Below are positions 1-62,833 of a DNA stretch of 62,833 bases, piece by piece. The stretch lies in contig JAAUQD010000003.1 of assembly GCA_012032815.1 (NCBI GenBank), positions 1 to 62,833 on the forward strand. The letters run 5' to 3'. The translations under genes were made by a program, and so were the position numbers. Source of the DNA: Flammeovirgaceae bacterium (GTDB lineage: Bacteria > Bacteroidota > Bacteroidia > Cytophagales > Cyclobacteriaceae). The notes under the pieces are model-generated. The model did no database searches and was not told where the DNA came from. It was given only the letters and a program-made list of their open reading frames with translations. Position 1 is the stretch's first letter, and every line of letters starts with the position of its first letter.

Positions 1-4
1 TTAA

Positions 5-187
5 ATTAAACCTTTGCAGGAACAAAGTTTTGAAGCCGTAGAGAAGGTAGCAAAGGCAAACCGACTTGCTATTATTTTTGATAAGGCAGGTGAACTGGTA
101 ATGATTTATACAGACCCCAGGCATGATTATACCGATTTTGTGCTTGAAGAACTTGGTCTTGGCGACCCAAACGATAAAATAAAGTAA
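5..187 (+). CDS. OmpH/Skp-family chaperone, C-terminal fragment
   Basis: Sixty codons open from the left edge to a TAA at 185. They read like the C-terminal part of an OmpH/Skp periplasmic chaperone: a charged helix (FEAVEKVAKAN), then LAIIFDKAGEL and a final YTDFVLEELG segment, which is the pattern of the family's last helix and beta strand. Skp-type proteins hold unfolded outer-membrane proteins in the periplasm. An in-frame TAA at 2-4 cuts the frame right at the edge. The upstream part is therefore either in another frame (another single-base error is likely in this window) or outside the view. It lies 4 bases before a second OmpH-family gene, forming a tandem pair as is common in Bacteroidota downstream of bamA. 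Confidence 0.6.
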   Translation: MKPLQEQSFEAVEKVAKANRLAIIFDKAGELVMIYTDPRHDYTDFVLEELGLGDPNDKIK

Positions 188-191
188 TAAA

Positions 192-746: not shown

Positions 747-751
747 TTGAT

Positions 752-780: not shown

Positions 781-783
781 GAT

Positions 784-1284: not shown

Positions 1285-1346
1285 GCTGCAAATTTAACCG
1301 TATTGACCGGTTGATAGCAAGAATAGATTTCGGACTCCTGTATTTC

Positions 1347-1363: not shown

Positions 1364-1377
1364 TGCCCGCTAAAATT

Positions 1378-2445: not shown

Positions 2446-2448
2446 ATT

Positions 2449-2996
2449 TTAGTTTTCGTCCTCCTCTACTTTCTTCAGCTCCTCATCAAGGATTTTGTCA
2501 ATTAATTCAAGCTGACGTTCATCAATGGTATTGTCGACACGCGCTTGTTTTTTCATAAACCTAAACATCGCGTTTTTCTTGATTTCATAAGCAATGAAGA
2601 CCGTGTAGGATTGAGCCTTCTCATTGTAAAATTTTTCTTGTCCTATTTTCCTTAAATCAGCCATGTCGGTATTCATGACCTGGCGTACAAGACTTTGAAA
2701 TTTATCTGCAACATCGGCAGCTCTTTCATTTTCAGTTTGACCAAGATATTGATCTGCTACCTGTTTCATGGTAGTATTTATCTGTCCAGCCAATTGAGCT
2801 TTAGCTTCAATGTCAGCTTTACCCTGAGCAATATTATCCTTGGAACTTTCTCCCTTTCCGGTAGCCCTGAAAAAACGATTGTTGGATTCATAAGCTGATC
2901 CACGGAAAGGCTCCTTTACCTTTTGCCAAATGGACTTGCGCAGGCAATGGCCAGGAATAATAAGCTAAGCGTGCTAATTTTTACGAGCGTTTTCAT
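2449..2996 (-). CDS. LPP20-like lipoprotein, one frame break
   Basis: Read from ATG 2996 the N-terminus is a lipoprotein signal (MKTLVKISTLSLLFLAIAC, lipobox AIAC). The frame hits a stop at once after SPFGKR. Adding one T to the run at 2928-2930 (AAA on the plus strand) joins it to FWQKVKEPFRGSAYESN and on to the stop at 2449, giving about 182 residues. The mature protein resembles LPP20-type lipoproteins: a W near the start, then a long run rich in Ala, Asp and Gln (DIEAKAQLAGQINTTMKQV) and a C-terminal acidic helix. Function unknown; probably envelope-located. The break is most likely a sequencing deletion. Confidence 0.6.
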
Positions 2997-3120
2997 ACGA
3001 TTAACATTTTGTTCGTGTTCTCAAATGTATAAAAACTATGCCAGAAAGAACGGTTATGTGAATCAAATCAAAATTCATGGTTTTGCCTTAGTTTGGTAAA
3101 CTATCTATAACTTGAGAACT

Positions 3121-4010
3121 ATGTTTTCATTCTCCACCTGGCTCCACTTGCGATTTCCTTTTAGTTATTTTTTGCTACCGGTTTTTCTGTTTGCCGTTAG
3201 CATTTCACCGAATATTAATGGCTCAAGACTTCTTTGGACTTTCCTCGTTTTACATCTTATGCTTTATCCAGCGAGCAACGGATATAATAGCTATTTTGAT
3301 AAAGACAAAAAGAGCATTGGAGGACTTAAGAATCCACCTTTAGTAAAAAAAGGGCTTTATTATATGGCTCTGCTGCTGGACGTTCTCGCTTTGCTCTTGG
3401 GATATTTTAAAATCAGTCTTCTCTTTTCGGTAATGATTTTTCTTTATGGATTAGCCTCTAAAGCATACAGTCATCCAGCAATCCGGTTAAAAAAATTACC
3501 AATCACGGGTTGGATTGTGGCTGGATTTTTTCAAGGCTTTTTTACCTTTCTCAGTGCCTATATCGGTCTCAATAACTTTTCACTGGATATCGCACTCCGC
3601 CCATCTATTATGTGGCCAGCGGCATTGTGTACACTATTGCTTTGGGCGAACTATCCAATGACCCAAATTTATCAGCATGAAGAGGATGGAGCCCGAGGAG
3701 ATAAAACGCTGAGTGTCTTTTTGGGAATAAAAAAAACATTCATTTTCTCACTTGTATTTTTTGGAATTGGAGCGGCAGGCTTTATAGTGTATTTCAGGAC
3801 GTACCATCAACAACAGTTTGCGATCGATTTTCTTCTGGCGCTATCTCCGGCAATTGTGTTTTTTTAATATGGATGATCCGAACTTGGAAGGATGAGACGA
3901 AAGCAAATTACACAAATACCATGTGGCTTAATTTTATCTCAGCAACATGCCTTTCAGGTTTTTTTATATATCTGTTTCTTGAAATCAGCCAGATTGGTCA
4001 GATATTTTAG
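3121..4010 (+). CDS. UbiA-family prenyltransferase, one frame break
   Basis: A multi-pass membrane protein that should transfer a prenyl group to an aromatic or quinone precursor. Both aspartate-rich metal-diphosphate motifs are present: NGYNSYFDKDKKSIGG and the second QHEEDGARGDKTLSVFLG. The frame stops at 3867 inside a run of seven T (3859-3865). One extra T continues it as FFLIWMIRTWKDET through two more hydrophobic stretches to TAG 4010, giving about 296 residues, a normal family length. ATG 3121 is chosen; a TTG three codons upstream is also in frame. The exact acceptor (menaquinone, heme or other) cannot be told from the sequence. Confidence 0.82.
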
Positions 4011-11066: not shown

Positions 11067-11399
11067 ATGATTTCATTGGGTGATTTTTTAAAAATTGATT
11101 TCCGTTCGGGAACGGTCGTTAGGGCAGAATCCTTTCCTGAGGCCAAAAAACCAGCTTTTAAGCTTTGGGTTGATTTTGGACCAGAAATTGGCATAAAAAA
11201 ATCCAGTGCCCAGATTACAGAGTATTATAGTTTGGAGCAACTGGCCGGAAAGCAGGTTGTGGGAATTGTTAATTTTCCGCCAAAGCAAATCGCCAATTTT
11301 GTATCTGAAGTTTTAATAACCGGTTTCCCGGATAAGGATGGAAAAGTCATCCTGTGTTCTATAGACCAGCCTGTAGCCAATGGCTCAAAATTATTTTAG
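11067..11399 (+). CDS. csaA: CsaA-type tRNA-binding domain protein
   Basis: 110 residues. It consists of a single EMAP-II/tRNA-binding OB fold like CsaA: DFLKIDFRSGTVVRAE, LWVDFGPEIGIKKSSAQIT, VVGIVNFPPKQIANFVSEVL. CsaA forms dimers and has been described as a chaperone-like protein linked to Sec export, and also binds tRNA. The order of conserved elements and the length match. It sits 2 bases upstream of the murF-alr gene, so the two are likely co-transcribed. Confidence 0.85.
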   Translation: MISLGDFLKIDFRSGTVVRAESFPEAKKPAFKLWVDFGPEIGIKKSSAQITEYYSLEQLAGKQVVGIVNFPPKQIANFVSEVLITGFPDKDGKVILCSIDQPVANGSKLF

Positions 11400-11401
11400 T
11401 C

Positions 11402-13851
11402 ATGTTTCAGTTCTCTGATCTGCCGGAAATTTCTACAGGGTCAATTCTTCAGCTAAAAGATGATCTTCAGTTTACCAATCTGTTGATTGATAGCCGCAAA
11501 AACATACTGCCCAAGAACACTCTTTTCTTTGCCATCAAAGGCGACCGACATGACGGTCATCAATATATTGAAGAGCTTTACAAGAAGGGGTTTCGTCAAT
11601 TTGTCATTGAGCAACCAATCTCAGCAACTAATTTTCCTCAGGCTAATTTTTTTCTCTCGCGTTCGAGTGTAGCAACCTTGCAGGATGTTAGCGGCAGCCT
11701 TCGCAAAAGAATTTCTATTCCTGTCATTGGAATTACGGGAAGCAATGGGAAGACCATTATCAAGGAATGGCTTCACCAGTTACTTTCTGTGGATTTTCGA
11801 ATAATCAAGAATCCCGGAAGTTATAACTCGCAAGTTGGTGTCCCGCTTTCGGTTTGGTCAATCAAGGGACACCATGAGCTTGGAATTTTTGAGGCCGGAA
11901 TATCAAAGCCGGGAGAAATGACGAAGCTTCAAAAGGTTATCCAACCAACGTTGGGAATCCTTACAAATCTTGGATCGGCTCATGATGCCGGCTTTAAGAA
12001 CAGACTTGAAAAACTTCAGGAAAATTAAAATTATTCACTGATGCAAAGAAAATTTTCTTCTGCAGCAACGATAAGTTACTGGCTGATGAAGTCGAAAGAA
12101 TTTTTCCTAAAGAAAAGTTATTTAGTTGGGGGTCTTCTCCTGATTCAAGTTTGAAAATAGACTTGATTTCAAAATCCAGTATTCACATTTTTTATCAGGA
12201 TAAATCGGATGATTATCTATTACCCTATAGCGACAGCACATCCATTGAAAATTTAGCTCATTGCATAGCTGTATTGTACTATTTCAATGTGCCTCCAAAT
12301 GAAATTCAGAAAAGACTAGCATTGATAAAACCGGTATCCATGCGGCTCGAAGTAAAGAAAGGAATAAATGGATGTCTGCTGGTTGATGACACGTATAACA
12401 ACGATGTAGCGGGACTGGAAATGAGTCTGGACTTTATGTCCAGTCTTCCCGGTAAGGACAAGTCAATCATTTTATCGGATATTCATCAATCAGCATTGCT
12501 AGAAGGTGAACTAACTAAACAGATAAGTGAGATATTGCTGTCCAAAGGAGTGCGAAAGTTTGTTGGAATAGGTCCGATGCTGTCGGCCAATAAAAGAGTT
12601 TTTAGTGAGTTAAAGGCAGAAAAGAAATTCTTTCCTGACACGGAAAATTTTTTACACCATTTTTCTGATGAGATGTTCAACCGCGAGAAAGTGCTCATCA
12701 AAGGAAGTCGATCATTTACGTTTGAAAAAATTGTTTCCCGACTTCAAGAGAAAGTTCATGGCACTGTACTTGAAATAGATTTAAATGCAGTAGTAAGCAA
12801 CCTAAACTACTTTAAAAGTAAACTTAAGCCAGGAGTGAAACTGATGGCGATGGTGAAAGCGCTGGCATATGGAGGAGGCAGCGATGAGATTGCATCCGTA
12901 TTGCAATACCACAACCTTGATTATCTGGCTGTCGCTTACGTTGATGAAGGCGTTCAACTCAGAAAGGCCGGTGTCTCATTACCCATAATGGTAATGAACC
13001 CATCACCCGAAAGTTTTGACCTCTTGATTCAGAATAATCTTGAGCCTGAGATTTACAGTCCAATGTTATTGAAAAAATGGCTTGGTTTTTTACAGGGAAA
13101 TCCGTCAAGCATTCATATCAAAGTAGAAACGGGAATGAACCGGCTGGGATTTGATGAAGAGCAATTGGATGAATTGGTGGATGTGTTAAAAACCAACACA
13201 AATCTTACAGTTGTATCCATTTTTTCTCATCTCGCCTCTGCGGATAAAGAAGATCACGATGCCTTTAGCAAATTACAGGCAGAAAAGCTTCTTAAATTCT
13301 CAGAAAAAATAAAGAGGGCGCTTACCCAGAAGCCTCTTATACACATTCTTAATTCAGCGGGTATATTAAAATTTCCTGAAATGCAGCTTGATATGGTACG
13401 GTTGGGGATTGGCCTTTACGGCATTGATCCGGAGCTAAAAGAAAATCCTGAGCTTGAATCTGTTTTCTCGCTAAAGACAACTATCTCACAACTGAAGATG
13501 GTAATGCCGGAGGAAACAGTGGGCTATGGCCGGTTGGGTAAGTCTGATAAGCCTATGAAAATTGCAACGTTATCAATTGGGTATGCAGACGGGTACTCCA
13601 GGGCTTTTTCGAATGGGGTTGGCCAATTTTACATTGGTGGAGCGAGGGCAAGAGTAGTTGGTAATGTGTGCATGGATATGACCATGATTGATGTGACGGG
13701 ACTCGATGTTTCAGAAAATGATAAGGTCCTTGTTTATGGTAAGGAGTTGAGTCTCATTGAAGTGGCAACATGGATAAATACAATTCCGTATGAAATCCTA
13801 ACCAATACCGGACCCCGGGTTAGAAAAGTATATCACATTGAAAGCGTGTAA
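11402..13851 (+). CDS. Bifunctional MurF-alanine racemase, one frame break
   Basis: A fusion typical of Bacteroidota. The N-terminal half is MurF, which adds D-Ala-D-Ala to UDP-MurNAc-tripeptide (ATP loop GITGSNGKT, residues 110-118). The C-terminal half is a PLP alanine racemase (Lys in MAMVKALAYGGG at about 12856; ELTNTGPRV-like C-terminal region). The two halves together supply and use D-Ala for peptidoglycan. The MurF frame ends with a TAA at 12026, inside GGAAAATTA. One extra A at 12021-12024 joins it to KLKLFTDAKKIFF and on to the stop at 13851, giving 816 residues, the expected fusion length. The break is very likely a sequencing deletion, since the gene is essential. Confidence 0.92.
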
Positions 13852-14051: not shown

Positions 14052-14309
14052 TTGTTTATAATTAATCTAAATAAAGTGGATGTAGCTCGGAAGGTTTCCG
14101 ATATGCAAATTGGGGAAAAGGCCATTATTACCGGATTTCTGGATGAACAGTTATCAACCAAGCTTCTTGAAATGGGGTTTATACCAGGGACAACTATACA
14201 GTTTAATTTTTCTGCTCCTCTTGGCGATCCAATTTGTGTTACTGTTTCGGGTTATGACCTTTCCATTCGTATGGACGAAGCGTCTATGATTTTAATAGGC
14301 AATGGATGA
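14052..14309 (+). CDS. feoA: FeoA, ferrous iron transport accessory protein
   Basis: An SH3-like small cytoplasmic protein that assists FeoB in ferrous iron uptake. The core matches FeoA: MQIGEKAIITGFLDEQLSTKLLEMGFIPGTTI, then DPICVTVSGYDLSIRMDEA. The frame opens at TTG 14052 (85 residues); GTG 14076 and ATG 14103 are in-frame alternatives and would give more typical lengths of 77 or 68, so the start is not fixed. Its stop overlaps the feoB ATG by 8 bases, showing a feoAB operon with translational coupling. Confidence 0.88.
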   Translation: MFIINLNKVDVARKVSDMQIGEKAIITGFLDEQLSTKLLEMGFIPGTTIQFNFSAPLGDPICVTVSGYDLSIRMDEASMILIGNG

Positions 14310-16415
14310 TCATCAACGTATAAAAGTTGCGCTAGCGGGCAAACCGAATTCAGGTAAATCATCTCTCTTCAACCAACTCACCGGACTAAATCAAAAGACC
14401 GGAAATTTTCCAGGCATTACGGTGGAAATGAAGACCGGTGTTTGTCAACTTTCCCGAAATCAAAAGGCAGAAATCATTGACCTACCGGGTGTTTATACCC
14501 TGTACCCGCGGTCAGTGGACGAAAAAATTGTTGCCGAAATTTTTTCCAATAACAACAGTATTTTTTTTCCAGACCGTGTCATTGTTTTGGCTGATGCTAC
14601 AAACCTTCGGAACTGTCTGCTGCTGCTCACACAACTGATAGATTTGGGATTTCCAACCGTACTCGCTCTAAACATGATGGACTTAGCAGTAAAGTCCGGA
14701 CAAAGTGTAGATGTTGGCAAACTTTCAAAAATGCTGGACGTGCCGGTGGTGATTGTAAATGCCAGAGAAGGACATGGAATTGATGAGTTAAAAAAGATTC
14801 TGGTGAATCCGATTAAACCTTCGGGAAAAAGAGTTTTTAATTTAAATGGAGAGCTTGCGTCAATAGTTGATGAAATAAAAAATCACTTCAAGCTACAATC
14901 TGAATACGAGGCTTATCAATATATTCAGCAATATCCACACTTGTCATTTCTTTCCGTTGAGGATAAAAATTTTATAAATGATGTTTGTGAGCGAAATAAG
15001 TTTTTTCATGGGAAATTTCAAGGAGCAGAAACTATTCATCGGTTTGGTTTCATTCAGGATTTACTCAATGAAGTAATTTTAGAATTGCCGAAACCCGAAT
15101 GGAATTTACGCACCCGTCAGCTGGACAGAATTTTAACTCACAAGATTTGGGGTTATATAATTTTTCTGGGTCTTCTGTTTGTAATTTTTCAAGCCATCTT
15201 TTCCTGGGCCCAGCAACCCATGGATTTAATTGACTATGGATTTGCAGAATTAGGTTCATTTCTAAATCAAAAACTCCCCAACGGCCCGTTCTTTGATTTG
15301 ATAACTCAGGGCATTCTGCCAGGATTAGCTGGCATTATCATCTTTATTCCCCAAATCGCAATTTTGTTTGCCTTTGTATCGGTGCTTGAAGAATCAGGCT
15401 ATATGGCAAGAGTTGTGTTCATCATGGATAAGATCATGAGGAAGTTTGGTCTTAATGGCAGAAGCGTTGTTCCACTCATGTCAGGGTGGGCATGCGCTAT
15501 CCCGGCAATAATGGCTACACGAACAATTGATAATTGGAAAGATCGTTTGATAACCATATTTGTAACTCCATTCATGAGTTGCTCGGCTCGACTACCGGTA
15601 TATGCCATTCTTGTGGCATTGATTATTCCATCTGATCAGTTTCTGGGCATTCTTAGCCTTCAGGGGATTACCATGATGGGGCTATACCTTCTTGGATTTC
15701 TTGCCGCAATTATTTCGGCCTACATCATGAAGCTTATTATTCAGTCAAAGGAAAGAAGCTATCTGGTTATGGAACTTCCTACTTACAGAATGCCGAAGTG
15801 GAGCAACGTGGGATATACTATTGTTGACAAAACAAAAGCGTTTGTTTTTGAAGCCGGCAAAATAATATTGGCCATATCGGTAATACTTTGGGTTTTAGCT
15901 TCGTACGGGCCCTCGGAAAAAATGAATAATGCCGAGAGTATTGTCCGAAATGAAGTGGTATCAGAGGGGTTGAGTGAATTGGAATTACAAAATCGTATTG
16001 CTTCTTATCGTCTTGAGCAATCGTATGCGGGGATAATTGGTAAATCTATAGAGCCGGTCATACAACCTCTCGGTTACGACTGGAAAATTGGAATTGCACT
16101 GGTTACATCCTTTGCTGCTCGCGAAGTTTTGTGAGTACGATGGCTACTATTTATAGTTTGGGCGATGCAAGTGATCACGAAACCATTAAAAACCGGCTGA
16201 AGAAAGAAGTCGATCCTAAAACAGGCAATCCGAGATTTTCACTGGCCACAGGTTTTTCACTTTTGTTATTCTACACCTTCGCCATGCAATGCATGAGTAC
16301 GTTGGCCGTTGTTAAACGTGAAACTAAAAGCTGGAAGTGGCCAATCCTGCAATTAATCTACATGACCATGTTAGCTTATTTATCAGCACTGCTGGTCTAC
16401 CAGCTAATGAACTAA
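14302..16415 (+). CDS. feoB: FeoB ferrous iron transporter, one frame break
   Basis: The membrane transporter for Fe(II). The N-terminal G-protein domain has G1 GKPNSGKSSLFNQLTG and G3 DLPGVYTL. The membrane part has the gate motifs, for instance GWACAIPAIMATRTI and MSCSARLPVYA. The frame ends at TGA 16132-16134 after SFAAREVL; one added G at about 16131 continues it as VSTMATIYSLGD through the last two membrane helices to 16415. Full length would be 704 residues, normal for FeoB. The downstream part contains the conserved C-terminal TM segments (LLLFYTFAMQCMSTLAV), so the gene is complete apart from the break. Confidence 0.93.
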
Positions 16416-18768: not shown

Positions 18769-18772
18769 TAGA

Positions 18773-19908
18773 ATGGAAAAACTTTACGGCCGTACTCGCA
18801 TAGGTATTTTGGGCGGAGGGCAATTAGGAAGGATGTTGATACAAGCAGGCCTGAATTTTAACATTGAGTTTTCTGTGCTTGATCCGGATCTGATGCGCCT
18901 TGCACCAAGCTTTGTGATTTTGCAGTGGGCAAACTCACCGATAAAGAAACTGTACTTTCGTTTGCAAAGGATTGTGATGTTGTAACCATTGAGATCGAAA
19001 ACGTAAGCACTGAGGCACTTAAAGTTCTTGAACAGCAGGGCAAGCGTGTTTTTCCGCCATCGTCCGTAATTGAATTAATTCAGGATAAACGTCTCCAGAA
19101 GAAGTTTTATCAGACCAATTCTTATCCTACTGCTGATTTCGTGTTGGTAAATAATAGGGAAGAGGTAATGCGCCATGAGGAATTCTTGCCTGCGGTAAAC
19201 AAACTGGGAAAGGAAGGCTATGACGGAAGAGGAGTCCAGATAATTGAATCGAAGCAAGCGCTTTCTAAGGCTTTTGATCAACCCGGTATTCTTGAAAAGC
19301 TGGTTGATTTTGAAAAGGAAATTTCAATCATTGTTTCTCGTAATTTATCGGGTGAAATAGAAGTTTATGATCCTGTTGAAATGGAATTTCATCCGGAGAA
19401 AAATTTAGTGGAATATCTGTTTGCACCAGCGTCTATTTCGGAGGATGTTAAAATTGAAGCACAACAATTGGCCAGGGATATAGTTTACAAGTTAGATATG
19501 GTTGGTATTCTGGCTATTGAAATGTTTGTTACCAAGGACCAAAAAATTTTAATCAACGAAATGGCTCCCAGACCTCATAATAGCGGCCATCACAGCATTG
19601 AAGCGTGCACCACATCACAGTATGAACAGCACTTGAGAGCCATTTTGAATCTTCCACCTGGTGATCCGACCTTGATAATTCCAGCTGCGATGGTAAATTT
19701 ACTGGGTGAACCGGGATATGAGGGAGAAGCGAAGTATCAAGGTGTGGAAGAGGTGATGAATATTGCGGGTGCGCACCTGCATTTATATGGAAAAGCATTA
19801 ACAAAACCATATCGAAAAATGGGACACGTTACGATAACGGATTACGACCATAACCAATTAAGAAGAAAAGCTGAGAAAGTTAAGAAGACATTAAAGGTAG
19901 TAGCATGA
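18773..19908 (+). CDS. purK: PurK, N5-CAIR synthetase, one frame break
   Basis: ATP-grasp enzyme that makes N5-carboxyaminoimidazole ribonucleotide from AIR, bicarbonate and ATP in purine synthesis. The opening [17 protein letters not shown] and LDPD are the PurK signature. The frame then derails at about 18889; one added base (GAT-CTG to GAT-TCT-GAT) gives [19 protein letters not shown] and continues to 19908. Full length would be 378 residues. The ATP-grasp core is intact downstream ([40 protein letters not shown]). The stop overlaps the purE ATG (ATGA), a coupled pair. Confidence 0.93.
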
Positions 19909-20416
19909 ACAAACCAGTTGTGGGTATTATAATGGGGAGTCAATCGGACCTTCGAATTATGAAAGAGGCAGCGGAATTCCTTGAAGAGTTTACTATTGGT
20001 TTTGAGGTTTCGGTGGTATCGGCTCACCGCACACCAAAGCGAATGGTTGAGTATGCAACTTCAGCCCGTCAGCGGGGTATCAAAGTAATAATTGCCGGGG
20101 CAGGAGGAGCGGCCCATTTGCCCGGAATGGTAGCTTCAATGACTACCTTACCTGTAATAGGAGTTCCCATTAAGTCATCAAACTCAATCGATGGATGGGA
20201 TTCAGTGCTTTCCATTTGCAGATGCCGTCAGGGGTTCCTGTGGCAACTGTAGCGCTCAACGGAGCACGAAATGCCGGAATTCTTGCGGCACAGATTTTAG
20301 GAACATCAGATGAAAAGGTTGCAAAGAAAATAGAAGGACTCAAGAAAAAACTTGAAACTAAAGTTGCTGAATCTGTTAAGGTGCTCAATAAAAAAGGATG
20401 GAAATCTTCTTCCTGA
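19905..20416 (+). CDS. purE: PurE, N5-CAIR mutase, one frame break
   Basis: Converts N5-CAIR to CAIR, the step after PurK. Active-site motifs [21 protein letters not shown] and [12 protein letters not shown] are intact. The frame derails at TCCATTTGCAG; adding one T to the run at 20215-20217 restores [19 protein letters not shown] and reads on to 20416. Full length is 170 residues, the normal size. The purK-purE overlap and order match those of many bacteria. Confidence 0.93.
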
Positions 20417-20422
20417 TAAGAA

Positions 20423-21693
20423 ATGAAACCCGATAAGAAAGGATGGCTTGTAGAGTACCTGGAGTTTCGCAAAGATCTTCTCCGGGATTTAACGGAAGAA
20501 AGCAAAGACGCCCTTCATCCAGATCAATCGCTGTATAAGATAATTCAACCAACCGGGGTTATGTATGGTCAGTCGGTTGATTTATTTGATCATCCCGATT
20601 CTAAATTCTGGAGCCAAAAAGACAGGCTTAAGATTCTGCTTGCTGAAAGTCTGGTTGGTAGTTCATTTTTCTTTCAGGGCAAGTCTATTCAGGATCCAAA
20701 TGATTTGTCTGAAGCTGTTCTTAAGGCTCTGGAGAATATTGGAAATTTTTATAACACTGTGTTCCCCGAAGTGTCGGTTCCGTCTCGTACTTTTTTTGGA
20801 AGGAAGAAAGCACCAGCTGAACTGGCAGAAAAGATACTGGCCAGGCGTGTTGATATGACCTCCGATTCAGCAGATAACTTCTGGTCAAAGTTTTTTAATA
20901 ACAGTCTTCTCTTTCTTGACATTTATATTTTCGGGCAATGGATTCATACTAATGCGAATAAAATTGTTTCTGATTTTTTTAAATATGAAAGAGAAGAGCT
21001 GCGGTTTTCTGTGGTAAGGGTAATCACTGCGGCATCACATGCCAACAAGAGGATTGAGGAGGAGGAAACAAAAATGTTTGACTATTTTATTGACGGATCA
21101 GGTCTTTCAGATGAAAAAAGAAAGAAGCTTATTCTCTTTTTAAGGAAGGTATGGAGATAGAGGAGGTCAGTTTGCCCACTAATAATTCCTGGATTCTTAA
21201 GAAGTACTTTCTTGAAATAGCCATTCTCGTGGTTTGGGCTGACAAAAAAATAGAGGATGTTGAATTGAATTTTTTAAACCGGGTAGCGAGCCATCTTGGT
21301 ATATCTTCCGATGAATTAGAGAACAGTTTGATTGCCGTAGAAGGCTTTGTTCTGGAACATTGGCAACAGTTGGATTATTTGCAAAGCAAGCATAGTTACG
21401 AAGAAGTAAGCGAGCAATACATGAACCGGGTCATGCGGGTGATTAATCAAAATAAAGATCAATTGATTTCAGGTGTCAGAAGCAGCGGAGAGCTGGTTTC
21501 GTTATTAAAAAAGGCACGGTCAATGGAGTTATCCGATGATGAGAAAAGTAAAACTCAGGAACTTTTGTTAACGGTTTTTAAAACAATTCCAACTTTTGTA
21601 ATCACATCCCTTCCACAGAAGTACCTCACCCTTCCTGTGATGATGAAGATTTTGCCAAGTTCGTTTTTTACGGAAAGTCTAGAAAATCACTAA
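20423..21693 (+). CDS. LETM1-related protein, one frame break
   Basis: Two open frames (20423-21160 and 21151-21693) that appear to be one gene of about 423 residues. Adding one T to the run at 21137-21141 joins LILFFKEGMEIEEVSLP in a single frame. The N-terminal part (GWLVEYLEFRKDLLRDL, IIQPTGVMYGQSVDLF) and the C-terminal part (ILVVWADKKIEDVELNFLNR, and VFKTIPTFVITSLPQKYLTLPVMMKILPS) match in layout, as I recall it, the Bacteroidota proteins named LETM1-related biofilm-associated protein. The C-terminus holds a TerB-like acidic helix pair and a hydrophobic LETM1-like stretch. The role is unclear; the name rests on resemblance, not experiment here. Confidence 0.68.
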
Positions 21694-25022: not shown

Positions 25023-25168
25023 TGACCAAACATCTGTTAAGCAGCAAATATACCCTGAATAGCCAAGGATTTGAATGAATTAGTATGAGTCTTAAAATTC
25101 AAATGAGTTTATTAATTAACTTTCGAAATAGTACAATCATGGCACAATTTTGGCCGGAATTTACAGCA

Positions 25169-25575
25169 ATGAAAGACCTGCGTTTTTTAATGAGATTAGT
25201 TTTTATCCTGATGATAAGTTTATTGATCGGCCCGCTATCGTATGCTCAGCACAGCGCTTTTGATCCGATCAGGGATGTTTTTAAAACGGGAAGTTCAAAA
25301 GAGGTATCCCGGTATTTGAATGCTTCTGTTGAAATTAATGTATTGGGAGACATCAATACCTATAGTAAAGCGCAGGCAGAATTTGTTTTGCGCGACTTTT
25401 TAAAAAATATCCAGTATCCGATTTTTCCATTGTGCATTCGGGCTCATCAAAGAGTGGGTTGCAATTTGCCATTGGCCGCTATGTAAGCAATGGTACTAAT
25501 TACAGCGTTATGATAAGGGTTAAAGAAGTTGACAAAGTGCTTCTTATACATGAACTCGCTTTTCTGAAGGAATGA
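25169..25575 (+). CDS. DUF4783 exported protein, one frame break
   Basis: About 135 residues. A signal peptide (LVFILMISLLIGPLSYAQ) precedes a small cystatin/NTF2-like domain: HSAFDPIRDVFKTGSSKEVS, VEINVLGDINTYSKAQAEFVLRDF. The frame derails at TATCCG-ATTTTT; one added base at about 25430 gives DFSIVHSGSSKSG and QFAIGRYVSNGTNYSVMIRV, ending at 25575. This is the DUF4783 pattern, and I recall the family next to nadC in other Bacteroidota. The stop overlaps the nadC ATG (ATGA), so translation is coupled. Start at 25169 or 25190; Met 25169 keeps a full signal peptide. Confidence 0.72.
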
Positions 25576-28068: not shown

Positions 28069-28583
28069 ATGCTCAAGAACGCTGCCGGTACAATTCTTTT
28101 CAATTATCTGAAGTGCTTGAGAACATCCACGAGTCCGATTTTACAAAACCCTTGGCCACGCTGAGCCAGGCAACAATAGGACAGCATGTACGGCACACAC
28201 TGGAGTTCTTTATTTGTCTTGAAGAGGGTTTGAAAACCGGCACAGTAAATTATGACTTGAGAAATCATGATAAATTGATCGAATCAGATAGGGTGATTGC
28301 GCTTGGTGCCATTGAGAAAATAAAGAAGTTCATTTTGAATATAACCGAAAATGAAACGTTGCGCTTTGAGGTTGGGTATGATGCGCTATCCGATAACATA
28401 GCTTCAATGGATACTAACTTCAATCGTGAACTGACCTATAATATTGAGCATGCTGTTCATCACATGGCTATACTTAAAATTGCAATTCGTGAGGCAGCAC
28501 CTTACATTTCGTTACCTGCTGATTTTGGTGTGGCAGTCTCTACAATTAAATATAAAAAAGAGGAAACCGCTATACCGCAGTAG
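28069..28583 (+). CDS. DinB-like putative metalloenzyme, one frame break
   Basis: ATG 28069 opens MLKNAAGTILFN, then stops; adding one T to the run at 28097-28100 continues as QLSEVLENIHESDF and reads to 28583, about 171 residues. The helical bundle shows the DinB pattern: ATIGQHVRHTLEFFICLEEG with the first metal His pair, and NIEHAVHHMAILKIA with the last His group. Such proteins bind a metal through three His; activity is unknown. GTG 28113 could serve as a start without invoking an error, but it would remove helix 1. Confidence 0.68.
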
Positions 28584-28598
28584 TTACCCGCCTGATTC

Positions 28599-37647: not shown

Positions 37648-38365
37648 TTGATGAGATAATTTTTTGGGGATCAACAATCGGCTCACCTTTGAGACGAAGG
37701 TACAACTGCGCTACAGCCACCACATCAGCAACACAGTATTCACTGATTTTGTTAAGGTTCTTTTCTTTGTAGTAAACCTCATTGACTTTACTTCCATCCA
37801 TTGATCCTTTGCTGGATGGGATTTTAAACAAAGCGGTAAGAAGATCCAGCGAAGTATAATGCTTATAGTCGCCAAACTTCCAAAGTTCCATCGTATCCAA
37901 ATGGGGGATCTCCCAGGATTTTTTTCCGGACAAGCTGAGGACCGCAGGAAGCGGGATACCATTGATCAGCATTCTTCTCGACAAGTACGGGAAATCGAAT
38001 TCTTTACCATTATGGGCACACAATTTTAAATTGCTCAGATCTTTTTTCTCCACCAACTGACGAAAGTGAGACAGTACCTGATACTCATTATCATCAGCAA
38101 AATATTTTGTTTTTATACATAGTTCATGACTTTCATTTTCATAAAATTTGGCCACCGCAATACACACCACCTTCCCAAATTCAGCATAAATACCTGCGCG
38201 TTGGTGAAACAGCTGCTCATCCGTTGTAAGCTCATCACGCTGTTTAAAAAAGCCTGCTTTCCGGGACCACTGAACTTTTAATCGCTCGTCAAGAGTGTTG
38301 TAGTTGTCTGAAATGGCTACGGTTTCGATATCCAGGAAAAGAATGTCTTTCAAGTCAGAATTCAT
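37628..38365 (-). CDS. PolB-like 3'-5' exonuclease
   Basis: 245 residues of the DEDD-type exonuclease superfamily, close to the PF10108 group (predicted exonuclease related to DNA polymerase B). The four metal-binding acids are in ILFLDIETVA, LCAHNGKEFDFPYLSRR and EYCVADVVAVAQLYL. No polymerase domain. First gene of the leftward operon; its end overlaps rnr. May trim DNA or RNA; the role is untested. Confidence 0.85.
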   Translation of the reverse strand: MNSDLKDILFLDIETVAISDNYNTLDERLKVQWSRKAGFFKQRDELTTDEQLFHQRAGIYAEFGKVVCIAVAKFYENESHELCIKTKYFADDNEYQVLSHFRQLVEKKDLSNLKLCAHNGKEFDFPYLSRRMLINGIPLPAVLSLSGKKSWEIPHLDTMELWKFGDYKHYTSLDLLTALFKIPSSKGSMDGSKVNEVYYKEKNLNKISEYCVADVVAVAQLYLRLKGEPIVDPQKIISSNEQEKI

Positions 38366-39358: not shown

Positions 39359-39412
39359 TAGATAAGAATTTAATATTGGATTGGAATAAGTTCCAGAACT
39401 ACTTTCGCCCCC

Positions 39413-40601
39413 ATGTTTTTAGATTCTTTCATTTCAGACAAAACATCACGGCTTCAGTTTTTGCAATGCTCAGCATGTGATCGGCAATATGATAAACTCG
39501 AAAAAATTCATTTGCCAAATGTGATTTGTGTACCGGGAATCCAATCATTGCTAAGTATGACTTGCGCTCATCAAAGCCCAAGCGCGTAATTGACAAGAAA
39601 GAAAACTCCATGTGGCGATACGGGAGTTTGTTACCATTGGCCAATCAGAAAAACCGGGTAACATTAGGCGAAGGATGGACTCCGATTCTGCCGCTTAATA
39701 AAATAAAGCAAAAGACAGGTTTGGAATGGCTCATGATGAAGGATGAGTCGCTTAACCCAACCGGGTCATTTAAGGCCAGGGGTTTAAGTATGGCTGTATC
39801 AATGGCTAAAGAACTTGGAATCAATTCATGTATCATTCCGACTGCCGGAAACGCAGGGGGCGCGATGAGTGCATATTGTGCACGGGCAGGAATGAAAGCA
39901 GTTGTGGTAATGCCAAGGCATACTCCAAACGCGTTCAAAAAGGAATGTCAATACTATGGCGCTGAACTGATAGAGGTTGATGGTCTGATAAGCGATTGTG
40001 CGAAAAAAGTCAGGGAGATAGCCGCATCAAAAGGGTGCTTTGACATGTCTACTATGAAGGAACCCTATCGTCTGGAGGGCAAAAGACTATGGGTTATGAA
40101 ATTGCTGAACAGTTGAACTGGGAACTGCCGGATGTAATACTCTACCCAGCCGGTGGAGGCACAGGGCTGATTGGTATTTGGAAAGCGTTCTATGAAATGA
40201 AAAAAATGAAATGGCTGGACGGCAGTTTTCCTAAAATGATTGCTGTTCAAACAGTGACCATACAACCGGTTGTGAGTGAATTTCACCAGAAGCCTATAAC
40301 TGGTAAAGACAATGGTGAATTTACTGTTGCCAATGGACTAGCCGTTCCGAATCCATTTGCATTAAAATTAATGGTGCAGGTTCTCCGGGAATCAAAAGGA
40401 ACCGCTGTGGCTGTTTCAGACCAGGAAATTAAGGACTCCATCAAAGAACTTTCAAGAGAAGAGGGTTTACTGGTAGCACCTGAAGGAGCCTCACTGCTTC
40501 CTGCCTTGAAAAAATTGTTAAGCAAAGGCGACATTAAGCAGGATGAGAAAGTATTGATGTTAAATACCGGAGCGGTTTATAAGTATCTTGAAAACTTATG
40601 A
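39413..40601 (+). CDS. thrC: Threonine synthase, two frame breaks
   Basis: PLP enzyme that makes L-threonine from O-phosphohomoserine. ATG 39413 opens a zinc-ribbon-like head (LQCSACDRQYDKLEKIHLPN); one base is missing between about 39519 and 39530, after which CTGNPIIAKYDL and the fold-type-II PLP core follow: LGEGWTPILPL, the PLP lysine in NPTGSFKARG, and PTAGNAGGAMSAYCAR. A second break at 40081-40084 (one A missing) gives GKKTMGYEIAEQLNW. The full length is about 396 residues. The Ser/Gly loop YPAGGGTGLIGIWKA binds the cofactor phosphate. It differs from E. coli ThrC by its length and N-terminal ribbon. Confidence 0.87.
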
Positions 40602-42722: not shown

Positions 42723-43076
42723 ATGAGCGATAATATCAAAAGGGGCAATGAGGGTGAAGAACGGGCAGCGAATTTCCTGACAGAAAAAGGGTACGAAATT
42801 CTTGACAGGAATTACCGTTTCAAAAGGTCCGAAATTGATCTGGTGGTAAGAAAGGATAATGTGTTGGTTTTTGTAGAGGTAAAAATGCGGAGCTCGGCAT
42901 CACATGGATTTCCCGAAGAGTTTGTTGACCGTGCAAAACAGCTAAAAGTTTTGGAAGGGGCGGAGCAATACATGATGGAAAACCAATGGCATGGACGCGT
43001 GCGTTACGATGTGGTGTCTGTTCAGGGCCGGGGTGCTGATTCTGATGTGCGCCACTTTGAAGACGCCTTTTACTGA
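42723..43076 (+). CDS. YraN-family endonuclease-like protein (UPF0102)
   Basis: 117 residues. A nuclease-like fold with the family motifs GNEGEERAANFLTEKGYEI, KRSEIDLVVRKDNVLVFVEVKMR and VRYDVVSVQG. The acidic pair in EIDLV and the FVEVKMR lysine are those of restriction-like enzymes, but activity in this family has not been established. Divergent from the isomerase gene and ends convergent with the YwqK-like gene. Confidence 0.88.
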   Translation: MSDNIKRGNEGEERAANFLTEKGYEILDRNYRFKRSEIDLVVRKDNVLVFVEVKMRSSASHGFPEEFVDRAKQLKVLEGAEQYMMENQWHGRVRYDVVSVQGRGADSDVRHFEDAFY

Positions 43077-43890
43077 CCCTTGCTGCTCGAATAAACTTCG
43101 CGGCCCTGCGGGTTGTATTCTTTTTTAATGAAAGGCTCGATACCCTGGAAAGGTTCGTCCGGATACTCCAGAATTTTTTTTCTTTTCCCGTCCTCATAGT
43201 TTTCAATCCAATCACCGACAGGCTCGCCCCACGAATACTCCCCGATAACAGCAACCTTTCCGTTTTCGTGAAACCGGTAGTAGTATCCTTCCTTTTCGTG
43301 GAATTCGATGGGAATAATTTCCTTAATTTTTTTCTCTCCATCGGATCATAGTAGGTAATGAGCGATTCCTTTGGCCACCCTTTGTAGTATTTCTCCTTGT
43401 CTTCCAAGATATGATCGCGGGTATATTTCATCCAGCGACCATGCTTGGTGCCTTTGTAATAAATACCTTCTTCGAGTACGATATCGCCTTGCATTTTTTT
43501 GTACGGACCGTGAAGCAGGACTCCTTTTTCGGGATCGAATGTGCTTGACCTCCTGATTTCCCGTCTTGTATAATCGTACCAGTAGATATCGCGAACAAAT
43601 GTGCTTGGCTTTTCGGTATGCTTGAGGTAGTAGAATAACTCGATGGTGATCCGATCGCCAAAGCCTTTCCGTGTAAAACCTTTTTTCGTTTTAATCCCGT
43701 AGTATACCTTTTTGCGGGGTTTCTTTTTCTTGGTCACGATTGGTTCGGAAATGTCTTCGTCCAGTTCAAGTAATTTGAATGGCTTGTCGGTGTCAAATGT
43801 AAATTCACCCTCCTGAACACGGGGCTCGTGCTGGGCGTAGACTGATCCAACAGCCATGAAGATCAGAATGAATGGAATTCGTTTTAACAT
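43070..43890 (-). CDS. YwqK/MORN-like exported protein, one frame break
   Basis: About 273 residues. Signal peptide (RIPFILIFMAVGSVYAQ). Repeated short beta segments with GxYYxxGxxxGxW-type pattern follow, such as GVLLHGPYKKMQGDIV, GIYYKGTKHGRWMKY, YYKGWPKESLITYYD and, after the break, YYYRFHENGKVAVIGEYSW. The break is a missing A in the run at plus-strand T 43327-43333. Reading past it with the frame restored ends at 43070, overlapping the YraN stop. The uncorrected frame runs on to 42820 but that tail is unlike the family. MORN-like repeats suggest a surface-exposed scaffold; function unknown. Confidence 0.72.
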
Positions 43891-55226: not shown

Positions 55227-56536
55227 TTGTTGGAAAATCCTAGTTCATTAGACGAACCTCCTAGTCAGTACCTTCTTGCGGATATTCTCACCGGTGACCC
55301 CACCCAGTTTTATTGGATAGGATTCACATCCATTGCTGTTCTTTTAGTGATGTCCGGAATTATTTCTGCTTCTGAAGTGGCATTCTTTTCATTGAAAGGA
55401 GACGATCTTGAGCGATGTCGCGAATCGGACGATCCCAGAAAACGAGGAATTGTAGAGCTGCTAAAGAATCCACGACTGCTTCTGGCTACTATTTTGGTCA
55501 TGAACAATTTCGTAAACGTGGCGATCGTCACGTTGGCAACGTTCATTATGTGGGAAATGGTTGGCACACGCGAACCAACAGAAATGGTGGTGGGTATCGT
55601 TACGTTTGTCGTTACGTTTGCCATTACATTTTTTGGTGAGATTGTTCCTAAAGTATATGCAACCCAGCGGAACGTATCATTTGCCAGAATGCTCAGCAGC
55701 GCGTGGTCGGTTTTGAAGTCATTTGCCGGCCCATTACCTGGCCATTAATGCACCTTAGCAACGTCATTGAAAGACATGTAGAAAAAAAGGGTTACATCAC
55801 CACTGTTGACGAATTGAATCAGGCTCTCGAGCTGACCACCCGTAATGATGAAACCACCGATGAGGAAAAAGATATACTCAAGGGCATCGTAAACTTTGGT
55901 ACACTTAACGCCAAGCAAATCATGCGGGCGAGGGTTGATATTAATGCGGTGGATATCGATATGGATTTTTCACAACTTTTGGCTTTCGTCCATAAATCGG
56001 GGTATTCGAGAATTCCGGTTTATCGCGAGTCATTGGATCGAATTGAAGGAATTCTTTATATCAAAGATTTGCTTCCGTTCCTTTCCGAATCGGCAAGTTT
56101 TAAATGGCAACGTTTGTTGCGCCCTGGGTTTTTCGTTCCTGAATCAAAAAAACTGGATTCTCTGCTCAAAGATTTTCAAAGCAAGCGTATTCATGCTGCC
56201 GTAGTAGTGGACGAATATGGAGGAACAGCCGGTTGGGTTACTCTTGAAGATCTCATTGAAGAAATCATTGGAGAAATCAATGATGAGTTTGATGAAATCC
56301 ACATTCCTTATCAAAAAATTGATGATCGGAATTTTGTCTTTGAAGGAAAAACTTCACTTCACGACTTCAGCAAAGCAGTAGGAGTAGACACCGAAGTTTT
56401 TGACGATAAGAAAGGAGAAAGTGAGTCGCTGGGCGGGTTGATTCTGGAACTGAATGCCGTGTTACCCCAGGTCGGTGAGACCATTAAGTACAAGGAGTTT
56501 ACGTTTATCATCGTAGGTGTAGATGCAACGAATTAA
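55227..56536 (+). CDS. gldE: GldE gliding motility-associated protein, one frame break
   Basis: A CorC/TlyC-type protein: a CNNM-like DUF21 membrane domain (SGIISASEVAFFSLKGDD, LATILVMNNFVNVAIV), then two CBS domains (QIMRARVDINAVDIDMDFSQ, VVVDEYGGTAGWVTLEDLIE) and a CorC_HlyC C-terminal domain (SESLGGLILELNAVLP). The frame derails around 55718; one added G (AAG-GTC) gives LKVICRPITWPLMHLSNVIE and reads on to 56536, 436 residues. Named GldE from position: followed by gldD, preceded by ssb. In Flavobacterium gldE supports gliding. Confidence 0.87.
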
Positions 56537-59424: not shown

Positions 59425-60138
59425 ATGAAAAGAATTTTACTTATTCCTCTCTTTATTTTGATCGTAGTAACCGCGGTTGGTCAAAAAGTTTTCATTACAA
59501 AGGTTGAATTGGCGGGTGAAAAGATCATCGTGCATTACAACCTGGAAGATTCCAATCCGGGAAGTGAATATTTGCTTAGTCTGTACACTTCGCGAGATAA
59601 TTTTGCTGCACCGGTAGTTAAAGTAACAGGCGATGTTGGTTCAGGCATAAAGCCCGGATCAAATAAAAAAATCGAATGGAGTATAATTCAGGATTATGGC
59701 GCTTATAAAGGTAAGATTGCTTTGGAAATAAGGGGGAGGATTTTTATTCCATTTGCTAAGTTTTCCAATACGTCTTTTTCAGAGTCATATAAACGCGGCA
59801 AATCGTACACGATTCATTGGAATCCCGGAGCAAATGATCCTATAAACATTGAATTATATAAAGGAGAAAGCCGGGTTAGCGGGGAAGTCAATAAGCCGAA
59901 CACAGGAAGCTATGTCTTTCAGGTACCATCAAAAACAAAGCCCGGAAAAGACTATCGATTGAAATTTACCAGTACAAGGAATTCTGATGAAGTGCTGTAC
60001 TCAAGCGTTTTTGCTGTAAAACCAAAAACCTCAATGGTTATAAAAGTGGTACCCATTGTGGTGGCAGGGGTTGTGGCATATCTTCTCATTCCAAAACCTG
60101 ATGAGGATATCGATGATCCACCATTGCCTGATCGTTAA
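59425..60138 (+). CDS. Exported Kre9/KNH-like protein with C-terminal membrane anchor
   Basis: 237 residues. Signal peptide (LLIPLFILIVVTAVGQ), then two beta-sandwich parts: KVELAGEKIIVHYNLEDS, and one that resembles a Kre9/KNH Ig-like domain, RGKSYTIHWNPGANDPINIE, with YVFQVPSKTKPGKDYRLKF. A hydrophobic segment near the end (VIKVVPIVVAGVVAYLLIP) followed by an acidic tail (DEDIDDPPLPDR) would anchor it. It directly precedes a large surface protein and may share its operon. Function unknown. Confidence 0.7.
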   Translation: MKRILLIPLFILIVVTAVGQKVFITKVELAGEKIIVHYNLEDSNPGSEYLLSLYTSRDNFAAPVVKVTGDVGSGIKPGSNKKIEWSIIQDYGAYKGKIALEIRGRIFIPFAKFSNTSFSESYKRGKSYTIHWNPGANDPINIELYKGESRVSGEVNKPNTGSYVFQVPSKTKPGKDYRLKFTSTRNSDEVLYSSVFAVKPKTSMVIKVVPIVVAGVVAYLLIPKPDEDIDDPPLPDR

Positions 60139-60177
60139 TCTGTAAATATGAACACCAAGCCCATTTATAATAATCAA

Positions 60178-62833
60178 ATGAAAAGACTTGTAATTGTACT
60201 ATTAGTTTCATCATTGGTTTTCTTTACAGGATATTCACAGAATTACACTGCGCTGAACGGACCGTATGGAGGCTCTCCCAGTAAGATTGTAAGTACAGGG
60301 TCAGCTCTGATAAGCATAGTATATAGTGCAGGAGTTTTTAAAAGCACAGATGGAGGCGGAACCTGGACACCATCAAATACAGGCTTAGGGACCGACTTAT
60401 ATCCCAATGATTTAATTAGACACGCTGCCACAGGTAAGTTGTATTATCTCACAAGCAACAAATTATATACCTCCACCAACGATGGAGCTAACTGGACGCT
60501 GACAGCCAACTCCGGATTTAGCAGCGCCCGCTTTATCCGAAAAACCACTTCATTTGTATTTATAATTAGTGGAAATTCTCAAGTCTATCGGTCGTCCAAT
60601 GATGGCACGTCCTGGTCATTGGTGAATTCATTTAGTGGATTCCCACGTGATTTTGCGGTGAATACATCGGGGCATTTTTATATAGCTACAGATGGAAATG
60701 GAGTTTACCGGTCTACAAACAACGGTTTAAATCTCGATCAACTGGATTCGGGTGAGGGTCTCTCAAACCCGAATATCTATTCCGTTTACACAAATGGGGC
60801 TACGATATATGCGTTATCATCTTCCGGATTATTTAAATCAACTAATAACGGAGACTCATGGACGGTTTCCATGGGGACTGCTCCAACTGAAATTACTGAT
60901 TGTTGTTTTGGATGGCAGTCCAAGATAGTGGCAGACCCTTCCGCAAATATTTATGTCATAAATGGATTGCTCATTTGGAAATCAACCAATGCGGGAGCTT
61001 CGTGGACTAGTTTTAATTCACCTGTCCCCTCAGGACTTTACGGAGATATAGAATCAATTTATTTTGAATCATCCTCGGTGATTTATGCTGGTATACGAGA
61101 GGTGGGTTTATATAAATCCATCGATGGTGGAAGCAGTTGGTTTTCAGTGAATGAAGGAATCACTGGATTATACCCTAGGGATCTCGAAATAACAAACAAC
61201 GGTCGTTTGTTATATGCCAAAGGGTGGCCCTGGGGTTTTTACATGTCTATTGATGATGGCGCTACCTGGGATTTTCTGGCAACCGGCACCACCGCCCGGA
61301 GTGTCGATGGTTTTCTGAAAATTGGGTCCACGGTGTTTGGACATGGATCAGGTATCATCAAAACTATCGATAATGGTTCAAATTGGACTGAAGTAGAACA
61401 AGGTAATTACTACTTTGAGAGCTTATTATCTAATGATGGTATTTCCATGTTTTCCCCAACTTATGATTATAGTGCCTCACCTCCTGTTTATGCGATCAAC
61501 AGATCCAATGATAGCGGTGTTACATGGTCATTGCAGCAGATAACAGGGATGCCCTCCCTGGATTGCAGTTATTATAGTTCCATTGAAAGGACCATACTGG
61601 GAAGTGGGGGTAATGTGTTTGCTTCGGTCTATGAGTATTGCAGTCAAAATAAGATCCTATTGTTTAAAATCGATCCGGCAACGGGAGCGGCCACCGAGAT
61701 CACCTCCTTCCCTGCGGGCAATATTGCTGATGTCGGTTATTTCAATAACAAGCTTTATGTGTTTACCTCCAACAGCAAACTTCATATTTCTTCAGATGCA
61801 GGCCAGACCTGGACAACTAAAAATACTACCACTGGAAATGGTACACTGAAAATTATTTCAGATAATACATTTTACATTCTTAACACCAGCGTTTTTCTGA
61901 GTAATGATGGAGGAACTACCTGGACAAACACTGGTTCTCCGGATGGTAACAATAAATACAACGTTGATATTTTGTTATCCTCAGCCAATTATTCGTATGT
62001 GGCTCAGGATCGCGGGAAAACGTACCGAAGCAATCTTCAGGTTGTACCGCCAACAGCCCCGTCCAACCTCAGCGCTTTTTATTTCGATCGCAACAGCATT
62101 GGAGTGATTTTCGATGACAACTCCACAACCGAAACGGGTTTTGTCATTGAGTTAGCAGAGGGAGCCAGCTCCGTGTTTGACAGCGTGGCATGGACAACGC
62201 GGCCAGCCAGCTATGCGCGAAATCAGGCGACCGCCCTAGTTTACCTTACTAAAAATGGTGTTGCCCTATCATCAAACACTTTGTACAAGATTAGGGTTAG
62301 GGCTTCTGGTTCAGGGGGAAAATCAACTCCCAGCAATGAAATTACAGTGACTACTGCTCAGGATTGCTCGGCCACTTCAGATGTTCCCGATAACCGCAGT
62401 TGGACCGCTACCACACAAAACATAAGCGGGGTAGGTGTCATGACTAAACTGAATCAAGTAGTCAGCGGCTCCAATGGATTTTATTCCATCGAGGATTTAC
62501 CAATTGGAGCATCCACAGGATTATCACCGGTACCTCCAGATCCATACGGAGTTGGGTTTGAAGAGAATTGTGGTGTCGTTTCAATGAGTTCCACATTCGA
62601 TTATATTGCTAACGGCAACGGAACCTGGGATTCCGGAACAGGAACAATAACCATTCCGTGGATTACGCACCCGCAATATCCCTATCGGGAAGAAACCACT
62701 GTGTATACGCTCAACCTCGTTGATCCGGCACCAGGCACACCAGCCTCCCTTACAGTTATTCCTTTTTTACCCAACACAACTTTGCTCAATTGGTCTACAA
62801 GTTTCTTTGCCACTGAATATGAACTGGAAAGAT
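60178..62833 (+). CDS. Large exported Asp-box/BNR-repeat protein, cut by right edge
   Basis: 885 codons open to the window end. Signal peptide (LVIVLLVSSLVFFTGYSQ); ATG 60148 is also in frame, ten codons upstream. At least 11 Asp-box motifs of the type SxDxGxxW are seen, for example STDGGGTW, STNDGANW, SSNDGTSW, SIDGGSSW, SNDGGTTW and SSDAGQTW. They build the beta-propeller blades of sialidase/BNR and YCF48-like proteins. A fibronectin-like part begins near VPPTAPSNLSAFY. Proteins like this in Bacteroidota are secreted, often by type IX secretion with a C-terminal sorting domain; that end is outside the window. Substrate unknown. Confidence 0.8.
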   Translation, partial: MKRLVIVLLVSSLVFFTGYSQNYTALNGPYGGSPSKIVSTGSALISIVYSAGVFKSTDGGGTWTPSNTGLGTDLYPNDLIRHAATGKLYYLTSNKLYTSTNDGANWTLTANSGFSSARFIRKTTSFVFIISGNSQVYRSSNDGTSWSLVNSFSGFPRDFAVNTSGHFYIATDGNGVYRSTNNGLNLDQLDSGEGLSNPNIYSVYTNGATIYALSSSGLFKSTNNGDSWTVSMGTAPTEITDCCFGWQSKIVADPSANIYVINGLLIWKSTNAGASWTSFNSPVPSGLYGDIESIYFESSSVIYAGIREVGLYKSIDGGSSWFSVNEGITGLYPRDLEITNNGRLLYAKGWPWGFYMSIDDGATWDFLATGTTARSVDGFLKIGSTVFGHGSGIIKTIDNGSNWTEVEQGNYYFESLLSNDGISMFSPTYDYSASPPVYAINRSNDSGVTWSLQQITGMPSLDCSYYSSIERTILGSGGNVFASVYEYCSQNKILLFKIDPATGAATEITSFPAGNIADVGYFNNKLYVFTSNSKLHISSDAGQTWTTKNTTTGNGTLKIISDNTFYILNTSVFLSNDGGTTWTNTGSPDGNNKYNVDILLSSANYSYVAQDRGKTYRSNLQVVPPTAPSNLSAFYFDRNSIGVIFDDNSTTETGFVIELAEGASSVFDSVAWTTRPASYARNQATALVYLTKNGVALSSNTLYKIRVRASGSGGKSTPSNEITVTTAQDCSATSDVPDNRSWTATTQNISGVGVMTKLNQVVSGSNGFYSIEDLPIGASTGLSPVPPDPYGVGFEENCGVVSMSSTFDYIANGNGTWDSGTGTITIPWITHPQYPYREETTVYTLNLVDPAPGTPASLTVIPFLPNTTLLNWSTSFFATEYELER

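What the first reader, a model, noticed from the sequence alone, without database searches (positions are those of the whole stretch)
1..62833. Eighteen single-base frame breaks, all repaired by adding one base
In 16 genes the reading frame breaks but resumes in a family-consistent way. The breaks are near 2928, 3859, 12021, 16131, 18889, 20215, 21137, 25430, 28097, 28726, 28807, 30397, 32784, 36543, 39519-39530, 40081, 43327 and 55718. In each case one extra base restores the protein and its length becomes a multiple of three. About two thirds fall in short A or T runs of 3-7. Essential genes (murF-alr, purK, purE, rnr) are among them. A one-sided deletion bias in homopolymers is a signature of long-read or pyrosequencing assembly error, not of gene decay. 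Anyone using the raw annotation would see many false pseudogenes.
Basis: partly seen in the sequence, partly recalled or inferred. Interest (0 to 1): 0.75.

Follow-up and report, generated by a model that had tools for sequence, protein, structure and literature searches.

The report
Sequencing indel errors splitting genes
Sixteen genes in this stretch look broken by single missing bases, but the pattern fits letter-dropping errors in a draft genome assembly far better than real gene damage or unusual biology.

Summary
The window is one whole 62.8 kb contig of a fragmented draft genome (202 contigs, 84.8% complete) of a Cyclobacteriaceae-like bacterium. Intact homologues in same-genus genomes show 18 frame breaks in 16 genes, each of net -1 (modulo 3). 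Three reader positions are off by about 20-30 bases. The same break finder passed 18 raw clusters in 54.2 kb of window, against 13, mostly weak, in 864 kb of relatives. Seven other contigs of this genome also carry breaks: 13 in 70.8 kb, 11 of net -1 and 2 opposite. The defect is therefore genome-wide and strongly, not absolutely, one-sided. Breaks concentrate in A/T runs of 4-7. No in-frame stop mutation passed my filter, broken genes are as conserved as unbroken ones, and essential functions are hit. Only 3 of 18 breaks lie by a -1 slippery heptamer in the right frame, so programmed frameshifting cannot explain the set. Transcriptional slippage is less firmly excluded, and gene decay fits badly. 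Best reading: uncorrected homopolymer-deletion errors of sequencing or consensus. No reads could be inspected and the platform is unknown. It is an ordinary artefact, useful as a warning about false pseudogenes.

The parts
2458..2996 (-). small putative lipoprotein gene (signal peptide by eye), one frame break at about 2920-2930
   Evidence: leader frame and main frame differ; relatives have one open frame
3112..4004 (+). UbiA-family prenyltransferase, break at about 3865-3867
   Evidence: Pfam UbiA; net -1 by 2 relatives
11354..13851 (+). bifunctional murF-alr, break at about 12014-12025
   Evidence: Mur ligase domains in the first piece, PRK11930 positions 264-820 in the second; net -1 modulo 3 by 2 relatives
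14302..16415 (+). feoB, break at about 16126-16131
   Evidence: FeoB domains; net -1 by 6 relatives
18773..19908 (+). purK, break at about 18890-18892
   Evidence: ATP-grasp and PurK_C; net -1 by 4 relatives
19905..20416 (+). purE, break at about 20214-20219
   Evidence: TIGR01162 positions 1-101 of 156 in the first piece; net -1 by 5 relatives
20423..21693 (+). LETM1-related protein, break at about 21113-21118
   Evidence: NF040639 positions 16-203 and 222-389 in the two pieces; net -1 by 6 relatives
25085..25575 (+). DUF4783 protein, break at about 25397-25402
   Evidence: Pfam; net -1 by 5 relatives
28069..28583 (+). unnamed protein of about 173 aa in relatives, break at about 28093-28101
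   Evidence: N-terminal frame comparison with relatives; no Pfam match to the main piece
28596..29628 (+). unnamed ATP-grasp-like protein with two successive breaks, about 28724-28732 and 28804-28812
   Evidence: three successive frames match one relative protein; weak carbamoyl-phosphate-synthase-like match
30290..30870 (-). tag, DNA-3-methyladenine glycosylase I, break at about 30400-30402
   Evidence: TIGR00624; net -1 by 4 relatives
31905..33031 (-). Cys/Met-metabolism PLP enzyme, break at about 32786-32791
   Evidence: Pfam Cys_Met_Meta_PP positions 2-95 in the first piece, cystathionine gamma-synthase/lyase-like models in the second; 3 relatives
35504..37686 (-). rnr, RNase R, break at about 36547-36558
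   Evidence: RNB domain split, positions 1-107 and 150-325; net -1 by 5 relatives
39401..40601 (+). PALP-fold enzyme (threonine-synthase-like by recall), two breaks, about 39494-39510 and 40081-40086
   Evidence: PALP positions 1-142 and 146-295 in two pieces; intact open frames in 9 other genomes; frames
43070..43890 (-). unnamed gene, break at about 43324-43329; the out-of-frame reading stays open by chance down to 42820
   Evidence: net -1 by 3 relatives; frame segments
55227..56536 (+). CNNM/CBS/CorC-domain membrane transporter, break at about 55719-55721
   Evidence: domains split over two frames; net -1 by 11 reference sets

Best explanation
The breaks are errors of the assembled sequence, not features of the organism. 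Single bases were dropped, mostly inside short A/T runs, by a read type or consensus step that under-calls run lengths (pyrosequencing, Ion Torrent or insufficiently polished long reads), and were never corrected. Shown: the breaks, their sign, run preference, presence on other sampled contigs, and absence of decay signs. Inferred: that the DNA in the cell has the bases; which platform.
For: 18 raw clusters in 54,154 covered bases of the window against 13 in 863,732 bases of relatives (binomial p about 7e-15). Breaks on 7 other contigs of the same genome, 13 in 70,777 covered bases, rate not clearly different from the window (p 0.11). Break rate per run climbs with length: 1 of 8,025 two-base runs, 2 of 2,255 three-base runs, 6 of 681 A/T runs of four, 1 of 232 of five, 6 of 105 of six, 2 of 36 of seven, 0 of 13 of eight or more. 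On other contigs 10 of 13 breaks touch a run of 4 or more against 4.1 expected. No in-frame stop passed the filter in the window or the 7 other own loci with breaks. Mean identity to relatives 64.7% for 16 broken genes, 62.6% for 42 other segments (p 0.64). murF-alr, purK, purE and rnr are among the broken. In passages I read, a long-read draft assembly showed mostly false deletions, tied to runs of 2-8, most after 4-5 equal bases, A/T commonest (PMC12007338); homopolymer indels causing frameshifts in nanopore assemblies are described in PMC9262707.
Against: No reads, no second assembly, no closely related species: listed genus matches are 64-77% identical DNA (list truncated). Long A/T runs are not visibly depleted: runs of 8 at 0.16 per kb in 431,829 own bases, 0.14-0.50 per kb in six same-genus genomes, so there is no wholesale run collapse. 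Two of 13 breaks elsewhere have the opposite sign. The tRNA check was uninformative (29 of 30 matches full length; fewer than one error expected). Run-length dependence alone would also fit real replication slippage.
Confidence: 0.93

Rival explanations
1. The breaks are real mutations: a lineage with genome-wide gene decay by slippage in runs.
For: Run dependence fits replication slippage too. The assembly is small, 2.78 Mb against 2.3-6.4 Mb listed for its genus, though only 84.8% complete.
Against: No nonsense mutations passed the filter beside 18 indels; nearly every offset is a single base; broken genes are as conserved as others; both halves keep similar identity; essential genes are hit, one gene twice within 100 bases.
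Confidence: 0.04
2. The DNA is correct and the cell restores the frame: programmed -1 ribosomal frameshifting or RNA-polymerase slippage at A/T runs across many genes.
For: Net -1 is the sign that -1 frameshifting or a one-base transcript insertion would compensate. 8 of 18 breaks lie near an X-XXY-YYZ heptamer in any frame against 2.5 expected. Transcript insertions occur in A/T runs and increase with run length (PMC5574713, passages).
Against: Only 3 of 18 have the heptamer in the right frame (no random control made for this count). Three of 18 have no run of 4 or more. The 23 homologous loci I tested show no matching break at the four sites they cover, whereas programmed sites tend to be conserved (recalled). 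Two opposite-sign breaks elsewhere would need another mechanism.
Confidence: 0.02
3. A break-finding artefact: normal overlapping genes in operons mistaken for broken ones.
For: Natural stop-start overlaps usually also give an offset of -1, so frame-switch prediction without references is confounded (and reasoning).
Against: The finder uses single open proteins of relatives that cross the join, and gives 13 clusters in 864 kb of controls. Domain models continue across the joins.
Confidence: 0.01

Closest known systems
Homopolymer deletion errors of long-read or flow-based sequencing (for example as profiled in PMC12007338, passages read)
   Same: Single-base losses, A/T runs of 4-7, strong deletion bias, many genes split across the sampled genome, a minority outside runs.
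   Different: Reads not seen, platform unknown; contigs are short for a long-read assembly; no depletion of long runs was visible.
Programmed -1 ribosomal frameshifting
   Same: Sign of the shift; some breaks near A/T-rich heptamers.
   Different: Heptamer in frame at only 3 of 18; no conservation in tested relatives; affects unrelated housekeeping genes.
Transcriptional slippage rescue of broken genes, described in reduced endosymbionts (PMC3017870 Blochmannia, seen only as search listing and abstract start)
   Same: A/T runs and single-base offset.
   Different: Some breaks have no run of 4 or more; 2.78 Mb draft at about 41% G+C, not a reduced A/T-rich genome; opposite-sign breaks also occur.

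Membership tests
Homopolymer-type sequencing or consensus error | Breaks spread over the assembly irrespective of gene function | tested here: met
   window plus 7 of the 17 other own loci that had any reference coverage, of 29 examined
Homopolymer-type sequencing or consensus error | Excess in runs, rising with run length | tested here: met
   no break seen in the 13 runs of eight or more
Homopolymer-type sequencing or consensus error | Reads or a second assembly contradict the consensus | not testable with these tools
   no reads held; no close relative in 62 genus genomes
Homopolymer-type sequencing or consensus error | Errors also in non-coding RNA genes | tested here: inconclusive
   29 of 30 tRNA matches full length, one malformed at its 5' half
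Pseudogene decay | Mixed lesions including nonsense mutations and relaxed conservation | tested here: not met
   no in-frame stop passed the filter in 8 own loci; identity equal to other genes
Programmed -1 frameshifting | Slippery heptamer in the reading frame at the site | tested here: not met
   3 of 18
Programmed -1 frameshifting | Site conserved among relatives | tested here: not met
   no matching break in 23 homologous loci over four sites
Transcriptional slippage rescue | Run at each break long enough for slippage | tested here: not met
   runs of 2-7, three breaks with no run of 4 or more
Transcriptional slippage rescue | Mixed-length transcripts or full-length protein | not testable with these tools
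   no RNA or peptide data

The most novel reading that the evidence does not exclude
The short runs are real DNA, and this free-living bacterium makes full-length proteins from dozens to hundreds of frame-broken genes through unusually slippery transcription or translation.
Probability: 0.02. Interest if true: 0.85.

Novelty: not a real feature. Interest (0 to 1): 0.08.

Why it matters
For annotation only: at roughly 0.2-0.3 breaks per kb of conserved coding sequence, gene calls from this genome would list many false pseudogenes and false gene losses and may lower its completeness score. If, against the evidence, the DNA were correct, it would be a striking case of genome-wide frame rescue.

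Tried and rejected
A reference-free frame-switch model recovered most of the breaks but also flagged natural gene overlaps, which give the same offset, so I did not count from it. A first count of in-frame stops was swamped by antisense shadow matches, in window and controls alike, and was replaced by a filtered count (identity at least 40%, 80 bits, 15 residues from ends, local identity on both sides). The filtered control count was 11, each supported by one reference set. That filter barely tests the low-identity gene on L202. Run-length spectra were checked for wholesale shortening of long runs; none was seen. The tRNA test lacked power. The grouping of broken and intact genes joined pieces wrongly and was redone. 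Literature: one search gave no paper; some searches were seen as listings and abstract starts; passages were read of PMC9262707, PMC12007338 and PMC5574713; no paper was read whole.

Rows dropped before counts: in the window, two antisense shadows and one weak odd cluster of 18; on other contigs, two of 15 raw rows (a contig-edge cluster on L031 and an antisense shadow on L032), leaving 13. Among those 13, the three on L202 rest on relatives of only 30-38% identity and the one on L207 on 33 bits. The p-value for the other contigs uses 13, that for the window uses the raw 18, and the control uses the raw 13.

Full report
What the window is. The window is the whole of contig 70 of a genome of 2,782,616 bases in 202 contigs, 84.8% complete. 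A RecG search found best matches among Cyclobacteriaceae genomes, the closest 73% identical in protein (records of the window's own genome may be left out there). In 62 held genomes of its genus the listed DNA matches to 18500-22500 are 64-77% identical apart from the window's own (list truncated), so no near relative was on hand.

Checking the breaks. I fetched homologous stretches from same-genus genomes, took their intact open frames of at least 90 residues, added frames from 19 named genome-contig loci, and searched for proteins whose matches change frame within one gene. In the window 18 raw clusters passed (54,154 bases covered); after dropping three, 15 clusters with 16 breaks remain, all of net -1 modulo 3, most of exactly -1. 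Two more, near 2925 and 28097, have upstream pieces too short for the search but are plain when the frames are set beside relatives' N-termini. The gene at 28596-29628 has two successive -1 breaks: three frames in turn match one relative protein.

Control. The same finder, with the same loci as subjects and the others as queries (12 same-genus genomes and 19 named loci), passed 13 clusters in 863,732 covered bases. Most of those are weak or have odd offsets; two look like real -1 breaks (L043, L045). At that rate 0.8 would be expected in the window.

Other contigs. I examined 29 further loci of the same genome; 17 had any reference coverage, 70,777 bases in all, and three of them (L022, L031, L032) had references fetched for them. 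Fifteen raw clusters passed; after dropping two, 13 breaks on seven contigs remain, 11 of net -1 modulo 3 and 2 of the opposite sign. Some are weak (three on L202 at 30-38% identity, one on L207 at 33 bits). The rate is lower than in the window but not clearly so (p 0.11). So the defect belongs to the assembly, not to this contig, and the one-sidedness is strong but not complete.

Context. Of 18 padded break intervals 15 touch a run of at least four equal bases against 6.0 for random places in covered sequence. Five of these intervals were placed by hand; for the 13 machine-placed ones it is 10 against 4.1, p 0.0007, and for the 13 on other contigs 10 against 4.1, p 0.001. In the window all runs of four or more at breaks are A or T. 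The break rate per run rises from 1 in 8,025 two-base runs to 8 in 141 A/T runs of six or seven; none was seen in 13 runs of eight or more. Overall spectra of A/T runs do not differ plainly from those of relatives, so most runs are intact.

Decay or recoding? Filtered for shadows, no in-frame stop was found in the window or the seven other own loci with breaks; the control gave 11 in all loci, each supported by one reference set. Broken genes average 64.7% identity to relatives, other segments 62.6%. Broken genes include murF-alr, purK, purE and rnr. Decay would not leave conservation intact and produce only one kind of lesion. For programmed -1 frameshifting, 8 of 18 breaks have an X-XXY-YYZ heptamer nearby in any frame (2.5 expected), as A/T runs of six or seven guarantee, but only 3 of 18 have it in the reading frame. 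The 23 homologous loci tested have no matching break; five weak single-reference clusters with other offsets appeared. Transcriptional slippage adds bases in A/T runs, increasingly with run length (PMC5574713, passages), and is the rival that fits best, but it leaves breaks without a run, opposite-sign breaks and the absence of shared sites unexplained.

Known pattern. In a long-read draft assembly most indel errors were false deletions, associated with runs of two to eight, most often after four to five equal bases, A/T being commonest, with a small share outside runs (PMC12007338, passages). That is very nearly what is seen here. Flow-based sequencing would do similarly (recalled; listings). 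Contig lengths from about 3 to 68 kb in my sample do not decide the platform.

Verdict. There is no new biology to report unless reads show the short forms to be real.

Noticed in passing
L031:16857-16867 and L032:13619-13626: Two breaks on other contigs of this genome with the opposite sign, so the bias is not absolute.
   Followed up: partly
L202:7062-8031: Three breaks within about 1 kb, seen only against relatives of 30-38% identity.
   Followed up: no
L043:4854 (Chryseosolibacter indicus strain PWU20) and L045:3977 (MAG ACE_BAC7): Well-supported -1 breaks in other draft genomes (7 and up to 4 reference sets), possibly the same kind of error.
   Followed up: no
L248:1501-1557: A tRNA match with anticodon arm and T arm but a malformed 5' half; ARAGORN finds no tRNA there. 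Error or remnant, undecided.
   Followed up: partly
window:42820-43890 minus: After the break near 43326 the wrong frame stays open for about 500 bases, so a gene caller would report one long intact but largely wrong protein.
   Followed up: partly
window:39401-40601: The PALP-fold gene is patchy: strong matches in 6 other same-genus genomes among the 39 genomes searched, plus 3 from other families.
   Followed up: no
window:60178-62832: A long reading frame with only 31% identity to relatives' proteins runs to the contig end.
   Followed up: no
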